Positions 4,041-14,565 of a stretch of DNA of 64,000 nucleotides are shown here, piece by piece; within the stretch, counting starts at the first letter, position 1; each line of letters begins with the position of its first letter. The notes under the pieces are model-generated. The model saw nothing but the letters and a program-made list of their open reading frames with translations. It did no database searches and was not told where the DNA came from. The stretch covers positions 3,016,779-3,080,778 of the forward strand of contig NZ_CM001240.1 in assembly GCF_000230835.1 (NCBI RefSeq), read 5' to 3'. Position numbers and translations under genes: made by a program. The stretch comes from Clostridium sp. DL-VIII. GTDB lineage: Bacteria; Bacillota; Clostridia; Clostridiales; Clostridiaceae.

Positions 4041-4679
4041 ATGGAAATAATAGAAGGTGTAAATATGCTTGATTGTACGGAAAAAAGTCATGTGTATTTA
4101 ATTAGAGATAAAGAAAATATTTTAATTGATACTGGATTACCAGGCGAAGCTGAAAAAATTTTAAGTGAAATAAAATTTATGAATATTGAGTTGAATAGTA
4201 TAAAGCACATTCTTTTAACTCATCATGATATTGGTCATGTGGGGAATGCAAAAATATTACAGGATGAAACAGGAGCAGCACTTTGGGCATCCAAAGAAGA
4301 TGCTCCATATATTATTGGAAAGAAAAGCAGGCTTGGAGTTAAAAGAATTGTTCAAACTTTTATAAGATACAAAAAACCTATTATAAATTATTTTTATAAT
4401 GGCTATGAGAATATTAGAGGAATAAGAGTAATTAAAACTCCAGGCCATACTCCAGGGCATGTTATTTTTATGTATAAAAATGTTTTGTTTACAGGCGACT
4501 TGTTTATTATTGTTAAAGAAAATATTAAATTATTACCGAAGGATAGGAATTGGAATCAATATAATCTTGAAAAATCTTTAGGGCTGTTAAAAAATCTAGA
4601 ATGTGAATGGATTTGCCCAGCTCATGGAACACCCATTATGAAAAATGACATATGGGAGGAATTTGTTAAAAAATACTGA
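4041..4679 (+). CDS. MBL-fold metallo-hydrolase with altered metal motif
   Basis: A 212-residue metallo-beta-lactamase-fold protein. Recognisable elements are ILIDTG (28-32), the metal motif THHDIGHVG (60-68), GHTPGHV (135-141), FTGDL (150-154) and CPAHGTP near 197. The usual HxHxDH reads H61-H62-D63-I64-G65-H66, so the second His is Asp and the conserved Asp is Gly; the downstream His, Asp and His ligands remain. HxDxDH variants are known in some hydrolases, but loss of the Asp would weaken the second metal site. The substrate is unknown; glyoxalase II-, lactonase- and RNase-like roles are all possible. It is monocistronic, with GGTGAG before the ATG and a large terminator after. Confidence 0.85.
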   Translation: MEIIEGVNMLDCTEKSHVYLIRDKENILIDTGLPGEAEKILSEIKFMNIELNSIKHILLTHHDIGHVGNAKILQDETGAALWASKEDAPYIIGKKSRLGVKRIVQTFIRYKKPIINYFYNGYENIRGIRVIKTPGHTPGHVIFMYKNVLFTGDLFIIVKENIKLLPKDRNWNQYNLEKSLGLLKNLECEWICPAHGTPIMKNDIWEEFVKKY

Positions 4680-4687
4680 TATATAAG

Positions 4688-4775
4688 AAGGTGTGTAAAA
4701 TGCTTATGTCAATATCAATAATATGGTTATTATTGATATTAACCACATAATTAATTTTTGCACGCCTTATTTTTT
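4688..4775 (+). terminator. Long hairpin terminator after the MBL-fold gene
   Basis: The outer arms AAGGTGTGTAAAA (4688-4700) and TTTTTGCACGCCTT (4755-4768) pair with a few G-U wobbles. An inner stem, CAATATCAATAA/TTATTGATATT, continues the helix, and a T tract follows at 4769-4775. It starts 8 bp after the stop codon. Confidence 0.8.
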
Positions 4776-5055
4776 GAAAAAACTTAAGCAACATGTTAAG
4801 TGGTAATTTAATATTTATAGAATATAATAATTCTACTGTGAATTATATGTTTCTAGTAATGAATATCAATCGAAAATTAAAGCTAAGTTGTAAAATCTAA
4901 TCTGTTAATAAGTTCACTTTCATTGTAGGCATTATAAATTATGTTATAATAATCATAAAAATAAGAGGAGATTGAATGCATAAATAATTAAAGAAATTTA
5001 AATAGAGTAATATATACTATTGATCTGAACAAGTACAATGGAGGTTTTTGTTAGT
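4776..5055. other. AT-rich intergenic region before the nitroreductase
   Basis: About 280 bp without a plausible gene. The sequence around 4930-4960 (AATTATGTTATAATAATC) offers -10-like hexamers for the downstream gene, but no clear -35 pairs with them. I see no riboswitch or repeat. Confidence 0.4.
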
Positions 5056-5595
5056 ATGATTAAAGAAATTGAGATTCGTAGAAGCATAAGAAAATATATT
5101 AATAAGCCAGTTGAGGATGAAAAAATAATTGAGTTACTTGAAGGTGCAAGACTTGCTCCATCAGGTAATAACACGCAGCCATGGCGTTATATTATTGTAA
5201 AATCTGAAGAGATGAGACGAAAGGTAATGGGAGCATCTAATAATCAAAAATGGATGTTAACAGCTCCGATATTTATTATATGTGTTGCAGACATACGTTG
5301 TAGAATAAAAGAAGAAATAAATATAGATATAGATGATAATAGTCCACAAGATGAATTAAAGCGAATAATTAGAGACACATCAATTTCAGCTGGATATATG
5401 TTGCTACAGGCTAATAATTTAGGACTAGGAGTTTGCTGGGTTGCAGAATTTACTCAAGAAGAAATTAGACCAGTTCTAAATATTCCTTCTGATAAATATG
5501 TTGTAGGAGTTATAACTGTTGGATATCCAGATGAACAGCCGAAAGCACGTCCGAGAAAGAATCTTGAGGAAATAGTTCGTTATGAATGTTGGTAA
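5056..5595 (+). CDS. Nitroreductase-family flavoprotein
   Basis: A 179-residue FMN-dependent nitroreductase-family protein. Signatures are RRSIRKYINKPV (about residues 8-19), LAPSGNNTQPWRY (FMN phosphate contact) and the C-terminal GLGVCWVAEF...VGVITVGYPDEQPKARPRK. These enzymes use NAD(P)H to reduce nitro compounds, quinones or flavins; the physiological substrate is not shown. The ATG at 5038 overlaps GGAGG (5040-5044), so ATG 5056 is the start, matching the normal family N-terminus MIKEIEIRRSIR. It appears monocistronic; no terminator is obvious immediately downstream. Confidence 0.92.
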   Translation: MIKEIEIRRSIRKYINKPVEDEKIIELLEGARLAPSGNNTQPWRYIIVKSEEMRRKVMGASNNQKWMLTAPIFIICVADIRCRIKEEINIDIDDNSPQDELKRIIRDTSISAGYMLLQANNLGLGVCWVAEFTQEEIRPVLNIPSDKYVVGVITVGYPDEQPKARPRKNLEEIVRYECW

Positions 5596-5879
5596 AATAT
5601 AAGAGGAAACCCAATATTATACGGAATTAAATGGAAATAAATACACCTTAAAACGTAGTAAATAATGTTGAAAAACATAATAGATGTTGATATAATAATA
5701 TTATGGTAGTAAAAGGGAAAATAATCAAAGATTGTAAAGAAAAAGCTAAATTATACATAAGATTTTGTAAAAAATCTTAATAAAAATATTTCCAATTTCA
5801 CATCTCTTATAAAATTTTTACTTTAATATTGTAGATTATTTTTCTTACTAAGTTTAGTAATTTGATAGAGGTGATTTTT
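5596..5879. other. Intergenic region upstream of the AgrD-like gene
   Basis: A 284-bp AT-rich stretch holding no open gene. In particular there is no agrB-like reading frame, which would need about 190 codons. It presumably holds the promoter of the peptide-kinase unit, but I cannot assign a convincing -35/-10 pair. Confidence 0.5.
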
Positions 5880-6008
5880 ATGGCAATTAAAAACGTATTC
5901 GGAAAATTATTATTAAGTATTTCAGGTAGTATGATTAAGGCTTGCACAGCATCATATTATGGACATGGTGTTGAGGAAATGCCGGAATCAATGAAAAAAT
6001 TAAGATAA
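5880..6008 (+). CDS. AgrD-like cyclic-lactone autoinducer prepeptide
   Basis: A 42-codon gene starts at ATG 5880, 7 bp after AGAGGTG. The peptide has a basic, amphipathic N-terminal half (AIKNVFGKLLLSISGSMIK), a single Cys at position 22 followed by TASYYGHG, and the tail EEMPESMKKLR. This three-part plan, with an acidic-Pro-charged tail, is that of AgrD precursors (compare DEVEVPKEL of staphylococcal AgrD), in which AgrB cleaves the tail and closes a thiolactone on the Cys. The Cys lies 13 residues before the Pro, farther than in the staphylococcal peptide, so the ring size is uncertain. It is followed 28 bp later by an AgrC-like kinase. No agrB is adjacent. It could be a decayed or orphan signal. 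Confidence 0.65.
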   Translation: MAIKNVFGKLLLSISGSMIKACTASYYGHGVEEMPESMKKLR

Positions 6009-6036
6009 CAAAGAAATCGCGTAAGGGGGATGTGAA

Positions 6037-7314
6037 TTGGAGATAGATTATATGGATGTTTTGAATTCAATATCTCAAGGCATATTTTTTGTTTATATAA
6101 TAAGTTATTGTTTACGTGATAAAAAAATATTCAGTGATAAAAAAAAGATAGTATGCATGCTTTTATTATCATGTGGTGGTTACTTTATTCCTAACATATT
6201 TGGCAATTTTTCTATATGTGTGTTTGTTACACATATTTTTAGTATAGTTATAATAGTATTTTTTTTCAAAAACAAATATATTGAAGCATTAGTTGCATTT
6301 AATTTAATTTATTCAATTGGAGCAATTTGGATGCTTATATTTGGAGATAGTTTATATGAATTTTTAGAATGCATTATTTTTAAAAGACATATAGAGCTTT
6401 TAAGCATATTATTCGTTTATGTATGTCAACTGCTATTGTATTTAATATGTATTAAATACCCTAATAAGATAAGACAAATCTATAAAATTATGCAGGCTGA
6501 AAAGTTTACAATAAGTTGTATATTTATAATGAGTTTTACTCCAGATTTCTTACTTTCACTAGGCTCAATTGAATACAATGATGAAGCTTTAATATATCAG
6601 AATATAAAAATTGTAATTTTTATGGTATTTATTGGATTTAGTGCTGTGTACTTTGCAAAAATAAAGGAACGGGCTAATAAAATATTTCAATTGAATGAAA
6701 GTTTAGAAGCTAAAAATAGTGAATTGAAAAAAATAAAATGTGATTATGGAATACAAATGTCATCACTATATGAATTGTGCCTTAGAGAAAAGTATGAAGA
6801 TGTAGCTGGTTTATTAAAAAGTATTATAAATACACCTAATAGTTCTAAAACGGGTGAAAAGGGTCAGACCAAGGAATCTCTATTATCACTAGCAACTAAA
6901 CATGTTATGTGTGACGATATAAATATAATAATAGATGATAATGCAGATTTTAAATTAATAGCTATGTCAGAAATGGAGTTATATAGAATAATTGTAAACA
7001 TAGTTAATAATGCCATAAAGGCTATGAAAAATAGAGGTACATTAATAGCTAAGTCCTTTAGTATTAATGATAAAACAATTATTGAAATAGAGAATGATGG
7101 AGAGAAAATACCAGAAAAATATATTGATAAGATTTTCGAGGCCGGATTTACTACTAAGAATAATAGTGACAAAAATCACGGCTATGGATTAAATATAGTT
7201 AAAGAGTTAATAGAAAGTTATGGCGGTAATATATCTGTGGAGAGCAGTGAAGTTAGAACTAAATTTACTATTATTTTACCTATAAGGTCTGCAAAGAATA
7301 CATATATATGTTAA
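6037..7314 (+). CDS. AgrC-like GHKL sensor kinase lacking the phospho-acceptor His
   Basis: A 425-residue protein: six or so membrane helices in residues 1-205, a coiled linker (ANKIFQLNESLEAKNSELKKI), then a GHKL ATPase domain with N-box NIVNNAIKAM (about 320), G1-like ENDGEKIP and G2 NHGYGLNIVKEL (about 380). In GHKL kinases of the AgrC type the dimerisation helix carries R/K-H-D-Y; here the matching place reads K-C-D-Y (Cys235), followed by the usual LYELCLREKYEDVAGLLKSI. So ATP binding looks intact but the phospho-acceptor is missing. Start TTG 6037 is supported by AAGGGGG 6 bp ahead. It follows the AgrD-like gene; no response regulator is adjacent. It may act as a non-canonical receptor or a partner of another kinase. 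Confidence 0.85.
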   Translation: MEIDYMDVLNSISQGIFFVYIISYCLRDKKIFSDKKKIVCMLLLSCGGYFIPNIFGNFSICVFVTHIFSIVIIVFFFKNKYIEALVAFNLIYSIGAIWMLIFGDSLYEFLECIIFKRHIELLSILFVYVCQLLLYLICIKYPNKIRQIYKIMQAEKFTISCIFIMSFTPDFLLSLGSIEYNDEALIYQNIKIVIFMVFIGFSAVYFAKIKERANKIFQLNESLEAKNSELKKIKCDYGIQMSSLYELCLREKYEDVAGLLKSIINTPNSSKTGEKGQTKESLLSLATKHVMCDDINIIIDDNADFKLIAMSEMELYRIIVNIVNNAIKAMKNRGTLIAKSFSINDKTIIEIENDGEKIPEKYIDKIFEAGFTTKNNSDKNHGYGLNIVKELIESYGGNISVESSEVRTKFTIILPIRSAKNTYIC

Positions 7315-7391
7315 AGAAATGAATTCTAACTGTGGCATAAAATTTTTTGATAAGACAAGTTCCTATTAATATTACATTGATAGACATATAT

Positions 7392-7441
7392 AAATTTTAA
7401 CCGAGGTTTTAGAAATTTCCAGTAAGCCTCGGTTAAAATTT
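7392..7441. terminator. Bidirectional terminator between kinase and hemerythrin genes
   Basis: AAATTTTAACCGAGG (7392-7406) and CCTCGGTTAAAATTT (7427-7441) form a perfect 15-bp stem with a 20-nt loop and A/T tracts on both sides. It serves the two convergent genes. Confidence 0.9.
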
Positions 7442-7469
7442 TATATATCGAATAAAATAAATAAATATA

Positions 7470-7859
7470 TTATTTTCCTATAAGCTTGTCATTTTCAAAA
7501 ATATGTCCTGTTAACCAATCATTAAGAAATTGAAGTATACTAACTATATATTCATCTTGATTTTCATCTATTGTAGAAAGATCTATATCATTAAGCTTCT
7601 TTATGAATGCATCATGTTCAATTTTCTGGGTAAACATTCTCTTGTAGTTGATTTTTTTCATGTATTCTTCTTCAGCTGTAAAATGAAATGCAGTGTAATT
7701 TTGTAGCTCTTCTAATAATGTTACTATTTTATCATATTTATCGATTGTAAAATCATTTTTTAAGAGAGTATAAGTTCTATCAGCTATTTCGAAAAGAACT
7801 TTATGTTGTTCGTCAATAAAATTTATTCCTGTCTTGTATTCTTCTTTAAATTCATACAT
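7470..7859 (-). CDS. Bacteriohemerythrin with one substituted iron ligand
   Basis: A 129-residue hemerythrin-like four-helix protein that would bind O2 at a di-iron centre. Ligand positions visible are H19 (IDEQHKVLF), H59 and E63 (HFTAEEEYM), H82 (EHDAF), H119 and D124 (HIFEND). The family HxxxH pair reads Q78-x-x-x-H82, so the first His of that pair is Gln. The length and all other ligands are normal. In anaerobes these proteins are thought to sense or carry oxygen. The substitution could alter O2 affinity or be a clostridial subfamily trait. It is a single gene; the promoter would lie in the 270-bp AT-rich region at 7860-8133, which holds no other gene. Confidence 0.9.
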   Translation of the reverse strand: MYEFKEEYKTGINFIDEQHKVLFEIADRTYTLLKNDFTIDKYDKIVTLLEELQNYTAFHFTAEEEYMKKINYKRMFTQKIEHDAFIKKLNDIDLSTIDENQDEYIVSILQFLNDWLTGHIFENDKLIGK

Positions 7860-14376: not shown

Positions 14377-14565
14377 CTACAATAAGAATAATAAAGGTAA
14401 TAAGAAATCCCAATTGTTATAATATCCATAATAATTTGGGAATCCATAATTTCCGTATCCATTGAAGTTACCATAACCGTAGTTTCCATAGTTTCCATAT
14501 CCATAGTTAGGAGTTTGGCAGCAGCATTCATGATGGTGATGGTGGTGCTTACAACAATTACTCAT
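14377..14565 (-). CDS. His6- and Cys-containing, Gly/Tyr/Asn-rich small protein (coat-like)
   Basis: A 62-residue protein of very biased composition: CCKHHHHHHECCCQ in the first 17 residues, then repeated YGYGN/NYGNYGYGN units, and a hydrophobic tail (WDFLLPLLFLL). AAAGGAG precedes the ATG, and the frame is uninterrupted, so it is a real gene. Gly-Tyr-rich small proteins with Cys/His clusters occur among spore coat or crust proteins, where Tyr cross-linking and metal binding matter; the hydrophobic end could anchor it. That role is inference. Six consecutive His with five Cys nearby would bind Zn, Ni or Cu well. Confidence 0.75.
   Translation of the reverse strand: MSNCCKHHHHHHECCCQTPNYGYGNYGNYGYGNFNGYGNYGFPNYYGYYNNWDFLLPLLFLL

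What the first reader, a model, noticed from the sequence alone, without database searches (positions are those of the whole stretch)
5880..6008. Unlisted AgrD-like autoinducer gene without agrB
A 42-codon gene with a good ribosome site encodes a peptide with an amphipathic N-terminus, one Cys followed by TASYYGHG, and the tail EEMPESMKKLR, the three-part plan of AgrD precursors. It is 28 bp upstream of an AgrC-like kinase gene. No AgrB processing protease or AgrA regulator is adjacent, and the Cys-to-Pro distance is longer than in the staphylococcal peptide, so the signal may have an unusual ring or be processed by an AgrB encoded elsewhere.
Basis: partly seen in the sequence, partly recalled or inferred. 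Interest (0 to 1): 0.75.

Follow-up and report, generated by a model that had tools for sequence, protein, structure and literature searches.

The report
Serine-type signal peptide with kinase-dead receptor
A tiny Clostridium gene makes a precursor of a ring-shaped cell-to-cell signal peptide whose ring most likely closes on a serine, and its neighbouring sensor has lost the histidine that such sensors normally need, so this looks like a quorum-sensing pair that signals in an unusual way.

Summary
The 42-codon gene at 5880-6008 is real. A profile of 26 related peptides, with the window and the clade members then known left out, scores it 70.7 bits (E 7e-21); the next frame in the window scores 6.4. 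It belongs to an AgrD-like family in 36 of 68 held genomes of the genus; none of the 63 places that the curated AgrD model finds there is one of its 44. Cys22 is in 4 of 43. In 31 of 42 loci with the peptide, agrB lies upstream. Here it is missing, but a clade-matched AgrB persists at 5.67 Mb beside a broken agrD, so processing in trans is likely. The new point is the receptor: the phosphoacceptor His is Cys235. His is absent in 15 of 68 genus kinases, on at least 3 branches, and in 50 of 121 database sequences, while the ATP site stays intact. I read it as a peptide-gated pseudokinase. No expression, peptide or phosphorylation data exist here.

The parts
5668..5696 (+). predicted sigma-A type promoter TTGAAA-17-TATAAT with TG before the -10; a similar ATGTTGAAA... 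/ TATAAT arrangement lies upstream of agrB in several relatives
   Evidence: consensus scan 11 of 12, though 14 sites were found against 16.6 expected in shuffles; relatives read by eye; not tested for function
5788..5807 (+). 20-bp element ATTTCCAATTTCACATCTCT shared upstream of orphan agrD genes (19 of 20 identical in two other species, G082 and G027), role unknown
   Evidence: no clear excess of sites elsewhere in the genome
5845..5860 (.). inverted repeat TTACTAAgtTTAGTAA just before the ribosome site
   Evidence: single match in window, 0.10 expected at up to 1 mismatch
5868..5874 (+). ribosome-binding site GAGGTGA
   Evidence: sequence
5880..6008 (+). agrD-like gene, 42 aa Ser-type autoinducer precursor
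5952..5966 (+). codons of the predicted lactone ring Ser25-Tyr-Tyr-Gly-His29
   Evidence: invariant Ser, variable next four residues, near-invariant Gly30; register to Cys-type AgrDs
6037..7314 (+). AgrC-like membrane GHKL protein, 425 aa, phosphoacceptor His replaced by Cys235
6739..6741 (+). Cys235 codon at the phosphoacceptor position (KCDYG; KHDYG in the paralogue at 5.67 Mb)
   Evidence: alignment; that this column is the phosphoacceptor follows from the known H-box of GHKL kinases (recalled)
7386..7448 (+). long hairpin after the receptor gene, probable transcription end
   Evidence: -32.6 kcal/mol for the 151-nt stretch 7310-7460, z -4.3; the terminator scan itself found none in 5590-7480

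Best explanation
The gene is an AgrD-family precursor of a Ser-closed (lactone) autoinducing peptide, predicted ring S25-Y-Y-G-H29, removed from the tail GVEEMPESMKKLR. It forms a two-gene unit with its receptor, and agrB is missing from the locus. An AgrB of the matching clade, encoded at 5.67 Mb in the same genome, probably cuts and exports it in trans. The receptor keeps the AgrC-like membrane sensor and an intact ATP site but has no phosphoacceptor histidine, so it cannot work as an ordinary autophosphorylating kinase. It most likely acts as a peptide-gated pseudokinase that changes the activity of a His-bearing paralogue (as RocA does with CovS) or holds a response regulator. Shown here: the peptide family, the invariant Ser and variable ring, the absence of agrB in cis, the absence of His with the ATP site retained, and their conservation across species. 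Inferred: lactone chemistry, trans-processing, and pseudokinase signalling and its target.
For: Leave-clade-out profile hit. Family in 36 of 68 genomes, 44 matches. Among 43 distinct 21-residue C-terminal parts (45 peptides) Ser25, Glu32, Pro35 and Arg42 are invariant, Gly30 is in 42, and positions 26-29 have entropies of 2.3-2.9 bits with 41 distinct ring pentapeptides (the seeds of the search all had Ser, so some bias is possible). In 30 of 30 examined AgrDs found by the curated model (30 of 63 matches; no spacing asked for) the first Cys is 10 before the last Pro, as Ser25 is before Pro35. hhalign places Ser25 on the ring Cys without a gap (pairwise E 9e-4, but probability only 22%). Of the 6 orphan pairs with a His-less receptor, 5 genomes carry a clade AgrB elsewhere. 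In the window's genome that AgrB is intact with an H-x6-C pair while its neighbouring agrD is broken, and the window peptide is the only Ser-type match. His-less receptors: 15 of 68 in the genus, 50 of 121 in the database set. N325, A326, N353, G355, T372-T373-K374, G382 and G384 are invariant in 50 of 50 His-less rows; of 79 columns conserved at 95% or more in His-bearing rows only H235, D236 and S242 fall under 60%. His status needs 4 changes on the genus tree, at least 3 forced by well-supported branches (direction of change not inferred by the tree).
Against: G042 has an intact orphan peptide but no clade AgrB at E 1e-20 (draft, 95% complete), only three AgrB genes of other kinds; G012 has a peptide and no AgrB match at all (83% complete). 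G042, G022, G050 and G047 have a His-less receptor and no His-bearing family match at E 1e-30, so a paralogue partner is seen in 10 of 14 genomes, not in all (at most 26 candidates per genome were scored). G038 keeps the His-less receptor with no recognisable agrD, and the second His-less receptor of the window's genome has only an agrD remnant, so the pair is sometimes breaking up. Positions 22-23 vary too (2.4 and 1.9 bits), so variability is not confined to the ring. Homology to Cys-type AgrD by hhalign is weak, and the curated model does not match the window. No response regulator was recognised among the frames listed downstream of 9 loci. Nothing about expression.
Confidence: 0.6

Rival explanations
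1. Canonical reading of the first reader: a thiolactone closed on Cys22 with an enlarged ring, sensed by an ordinary histidine kinase.
For: The window, G042, P0002 and P0003 do have Cys at position 22.
Against: Cys22 is in 4 of 43 distinct C-terminal parts; Ser25 in 43 of 43, in the register of 30 of 30 Cys-type AgrDs examined. P0004 has Gly22. The kinase lacks His.
Confidence: 0.08
2. Decaying relic: the operon lost agrB, the receptor lost its catalytic His, and the rest is on the way to becoming pseudogenes.
For: agrD remnants beside two other kinases of the same genome, none recognisable beside the two kinases of G038; His absent on several branches.
Against: Frames are full length across deep divergence (about 50% identity). 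The ATP-site residues are kept in 50 of 50 His-less rows. 6 of 8 genus members of the clade keep an intact peptide with the invariant residues. Ribosome site in place.
Confidence: 0.15
3. Decoy or insulating receptor: the His-less protein binds the lactone (its own and those of relatives) without output, damping signalling by the His-bearing paralogue.
For: His-bearing family paralogue in 10 of 14 genomes with a His-less receptor; in G005 and G039 a His-less and a His-bearing kinase lie in tandem behind agrB-agrD.
Against: Retention of the ATP site would not be needed by a mere decoy; in 4 of 14 genomes no partner was found.
Confidence: 0.25
4. Catalysis in trans: the His-less subunit uses its ATP site to phosphorylate the His of a paralogue within a mixed dimer, so the peptide gates the partner's phosphorylation.
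For: The loss is confined to the H-box (H235, D236, S242) with the N, G1, F and G2 motifs kept; mixed dimers of histidine kinases are known in general (recalled).
Against: No partner found in G042, G022, G050, G047.
Confidence: 0.25

Closest known systems
C. autoethanogenum Agr system 2 (agrD2-agrC2 without agrB or agrA; PMC8748961, passages read)
   Same: Two-gene agrD-agrC unit without agrB; the authors propose processing by the AgrB of another locus.
   Different: The passages speak of a 5-membered lactone ring and a Pro-X-X-Pro tail motif but give neither the ring sequence nor the state of the AgrC2 histidine; here the tail is GVEEMPESMKKLR.
S. pseudintermedius AIP RIPT[STGFF] and C. difficile AgrD2 NSA[SSWVA] (table in PMC12312760, passages read; also PMC3673130, passages read)
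   Same: Ser in the ring position and a five-residue ring; for S. pseudintermedius the lactone was determined biochemically.
   Different: Those are listed with agrBDCA loci; the family here has its own tail, recurs without agrB, and is paired in part with His-less receptors.
RocA of Streptococcus (PMC7028121) and DivL of Caulobacter (PMC4211667), passages read
   Same: Histidine-kinase-like proteins acting without phosphoacceptor activity: RocA interacts with CovS and its His is dispensable; DivL has Tyr at the His position with the other motifs kept.
   Different: Nothing in the passages pairs either with an autoinducer precursor. RocA still has the His and lacks several ATP-domain residues, the reverse of the case here.
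TIGR04223 quorum_AgrD (NCBIfam)
   Same: Same plan; same distance of ring residue to conserved Pro.
   Different: 30 of 34 family members, the window among them, give no match at E up to 1, while the Cys-type AgrD at 1.61 Mb passes at 31.3 bits, cut-off 19.

Membership tests
AgrD (cyclic lactone autoinducer precursor) | short precursor: basic/hydrophobic N-part, variable core, conserved acidic-Pro tail | tested here: met
   A1 alignment of 34 and column entropies of residues 22-42
AgrD (cyclic lactone autoinducer precursor) | ring nucleophile (Cys or Ser) 10 residues before the conserved Pro | tested here: met
   Ser25 to Pro35 = 10; Cys to last Pro = 10 in 30 of 30 model-recognised AgrDs examined, out of 63 found
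AgrD (cyclic lactone autoinducer precursor) | match to curated model TIGR04223 | tested here: not met
   window 0 matches; 4 of 34 members match weakly, best E 0.006; 0 of 63 genus-wide model matches fall on the 44 Ser-type places; control AgrD at 1.61 Mb passes
AgrD (cyclic lactone autoinducer precursor) | agrB beside it | tested here: not met
   no AgrB in the window; met within 2.5 kb upstream for 31 of 42 loci with peptide and kinase, window counted
AgrD (cyclic lactone autoinducer precursor) | secreted cyclic peptide | not testable with these tools
   needs mass spectrometry
AgrC receptor kinase | multi-helix membrane sensor plus GHKL ATPase | tested here: met
   Pfam HATPase_c and GHKL; model with seven helices of 13-36 residues in the first 180 residues, then a long helix; fold matches are to histidine-kinase cores only
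AgrC receptor kinase | phosphoacceptor histidine | tested here: not met
   Cys235; His absent in 15 of 68 genus kinases
AgrC receptor kinase | ATP-binding residues | tested here: met
   invariant in 50 of 50 His-less rows; binding itself not tested
AgrC receptor kinase | response regulator encoded beside it | tested here: not met
   four neighbours in the window scanned with Pfam, none a regulator; first frames downstream of 9 loci read by eye, six of them scanned; 10 LytTR genes in the genome, none in the window
AgrB able to serve in trans | full-length clade AgrB with His/Cys pair in the genome | tested here: met
   5671720-5672274, 185 aa, H75-x6-C82; that this pair is catalytic is recalled from staphylococcal AgrB

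The most novel reading that the evidence does not exclude
A quorum-sensing circuit whose receptors have repeatedly and selectively lost the phosphoacceptor histidine while staying paired with an intact, diversifying Ser-lactone signal gene: peptide-gated pseudokinases that are a standard part of agr networks in Clostridium, working through His-bearing paralogues or by holding a regulator.
Probability: 0.5. Interest if true: 0.78.

Novelty: new variant of a known kind. Interest (0 to 1): 0.62.

Why it matters
The curated AgrD model finds none of this family's 44 places in the genus, so signals in 36 of 68 held genomes may have been overlooked, including one labelled C. beijerinckii (contig length of G034:C16 equals that of P0027). 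One study of C. beijerinckii NRRL B-598 reported an agr cluster lacking agrD (PMC6362236, passage read), which could be such a case (not checked). Receptors that keep an ATP site but lack the histidine on several branches offer a testable case of pseudokinase signalling in quorum sensing, and an orphan peptide with a lone matching AgrB elsewhere makes trans-processing directly testable.

Tried and rejected
An upstream element 'CTTTCCAATAAGACATATCT' seemed shared between orphan and complete loci, but it is the start of a divergent methyltransferase gene read backwards; rejected as an operator. The orphan-specific 20-bp element was searched in the whole genome with up to 2 mismatches: 18 matches against 11 for the reversed pattern, one exact; no regulon seen. 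Rfam: no match in L092, L087, L081 at gathering cut-offs, nor in window 4600-7600 at E up to 1. Plasmid records: no relative of the receptor. Viral contigs: 7 stretches matched the peptide pattern but none was confirmed as a relative. Genome contigs: 12 loci with matches in the kinase domain only, not used. A first check of the Cys-to-Pro spacing (eight AgrDs) was circular, because the script itself asked for that spacing; I replaced it with the model-based check. Alignment A3, used, is made of those eight. Two kinase fragments of the 70 matches (G012:C12 and G015:C228:1516) were left out of the His table; one more (G012:C34:1180) was left out of the tree. The database listing shows 120 of 236 homologues; only these were scored for His, and 64 of them plus the window were put in the tree. 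Literature: no paper held contains the tail motifs searched; searches on serine AgrD in clostridia, orphan agrD and AgrC lacking His or pseudokinase showed nothing describing this pair in the listings, with passages of seven papers read. This covers open-licence papers only.

Full report
What is there. The frame at 5880-6008 starts with ATG behind GAGGTGA, encodes 42 residues, and ends 28 bp before the TTG start of a 425-residue GHKL protein. A promoter-like TTGAAA-17-TATAAT lies at 5668-5696 (as many such sites are found in shuffled sequence) and a strong hairpin at 7386-7448 (the consensus terminator scan found none), so a two-gene transcript is plausible but not shown. The organism is a Clostridium: the nearest named protein to the receptor is from Clostridium sp. 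BL-8 (99%), the next named ones from C. beijerinckii.

Is the small gene real? A profile from 26 peptides, without the window, its three database homologues and the four orphan-clade peptides then aligned, gives 70.7 bits (E 7e-21). The next frame in the 64-kb window has 6.4 bits, ten shuffled windows reach 5.9-10.0 and the reversed window 7.6. Three close database homologues share 86, 79 and 69% identity. The full profile finds 44 matches in 36 of 68 held genomes of the genus; it includes the window, so the leave-out test is the one to trust.

Which residue closes the ring? I compared the last 21 residues of 45 peptides (42 beside a kinase, 3 from the database; 43 distinct). Ser25, Glu32, Pro35 and Arg42 are invariant and Gly30 is in 42 of 43, while positions 26-29 vary strongly (2.3-2.9 bits, 41 distinct pentapeptides). 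Positions 22 and 23 vary as well (2.4 and 1.9 bits). This fits a processed signal: fixed sites around a variable core. Ser25 is 10 residues before Pro35. As a yardstick I searched the genus with the curated AgrD model: 63 matches in 43 of 68 genomes, none of them at a Ser-type place, and in 30 of the 30 read out the first Cys is exactly 10 before the last Pro. Profile-profile alignment also puts Ser25 on that Cys without a gap (E 9e-4 for a single comparison, probability 22%, so weak on its own). Cys22 is present in 4 of 43 and sits 13 before the Pro. Ser-closed rings are known elsewhere: S. pseudintermedius, and a C. difficile AgrD2 listed as such (PMC3673130, PMC12312760; passages read).

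Where is AgrB? Of 68 receptor-family kinases examined, 42 have such a peptide within 400 bp upstream, and 31 of those have agrB within 2.5 kb upstream. Of the 11 without, 2 (G087, G090) are cut by contig ends and 9 are orphans with flanks held: 6 with a His-less receptor, including the window, and 3 with a His-bearing one (G020, G084, G012). A clade AgrB exists elsewhere in 7 of those 9 genomes; G042 and G012, both incomplete drafts, lack it. In the window's genome the clade AgrB at 5671720-5672274 is full length with H75-x6-C82, but its neighbouring agrD is broken, only a tail IPKLVKKLR being readable in frame, and the window peptide is the only Ser-type match in the genome. An AgrB kept without a working neighbour fits service in trans, as proposed for C. 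autoethanogenum AgrD2 (PMC8748961, passages). This step is inferred.

The receptor. The alignment column of the phosphoacceptor His (KHDYG in the paralogue beside agrB) is Cys in the window. Over 68 kinases of the genus it is His in 53 and something else in 15: N, D, Y, G and C. All 8 members of the window's clade lack it (clade support 100/100), and 4 changes are needed on the tree of 67, 3 of them forced by well-supported branches (the tree does not tell loss from gain, loss is my reading). In 121 sequences (window plus 120 of 236 database hits) 50 lack His, and His-bearing rows sit inside the window's wider clade, with 6 His/no-His changes on a tree of 65 rows. Yet N325, A326, N353, G355, T372-T373-K374, G382 and G384 are the same in 50 of 50 His-less rows; of 79 columns conserved at 95% or more in His-bearing rows only H235, D236 and S242 drop below 60%. 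So the loss is specific to the H-box. The AlphaFold model (mean pLDDT 81, pTM 0.54) has seven helices of 13-36 residues in its first 180 residues, a long helix through the H-box, and an ATPase domain; solved-structure matches are to histidine-kinase and CheA ATPase cores. They do not test the sensor part.

How it may work. A His-less protein cannot pass on its own phosphate by the usual route. Two known examples, RocA and DivL, act as pseudokinases through a partner kinase or by binding a regulator (PMC7028121, PMC4211667; passages); RocA, unlike the case here, keeps its His and has a degenerate ATP domain. Ten of the 14 genomes with a His-less receptor also show a His-bearing paralogue; in G005 and G039 the two lie in tandem. 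G042, G022, G050 and G047 do not, which speaks against a partner of this family being obligatory. No response regulator was recognised downstream in nine loci: up to four frames of each were listed and read by eye, six were scanned with Pfam, and the window's own four neighbours earlier. The genome has 10 LytTR genes elsewhere. The target is therefore unknown.

Against the reading. G038 and a second locus of the window's genome keep the His-less receptor without an intact peptide gene. The curated AgrD model does not match the window peptide, although the control Cys-type AgrD passes. Decay cannot be excluded without expression or strain-level DNA. I judge it less likely because full-length frames, ATP site and peptide motif persist across proteins about 50% identical.

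Verdict. The small gene is a good AgrD-family candidate of an unlisted Ser type. The lack of agrB in cis has precedent. The pairing with a receptor that has lost only its phosphoacceptor is the surprising part and the one worth testing.

Noticed in passing
window 5788-5807; also upstream of orphan agrD in L170 (G082) and L089 (G027), partly in L087, L088 and L090: A 20-bp element is nearly identical upstream of orphan agrD genes of different species although the surrounding DNA has diverged; no genome-wide set of sites was found.
   Followed up: partly
L004 1319-1479 / L092 (G000 5.67 Mb): agrB-kinase locus whose agrD is broken by stops; only the tail IPKLVKKLR is readable.
   Followed up: yes
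L004 2342-2908 and upstream of many complete loci: A divergently transcribed methyltransferase gene (Pfam Methyltransf_11; start MEDMSYWKEVWERKG) is a recurrent neighbour of complete agrBD-kinase operons and of some family kinases without agrB.
   Followed up: partly
L155 (G005) and L136 (G039): Tandem order agrB - agrD - His-less kinase - His-bearing kinase in two species.
   Followed up: partly
L001 (G000 3.086 Mb, 5.5 kb past the window end): AgrB gene followed by a LytTR regulator gene with no agrD seen between them.
   Followed up: no
window 14377-14565 (-): Short His/Cys/Tyr/Gly-rich frame (MSNCCKHHHHHHECCC...YGNYGYG...), with no function assigned here.
   Followed up: no
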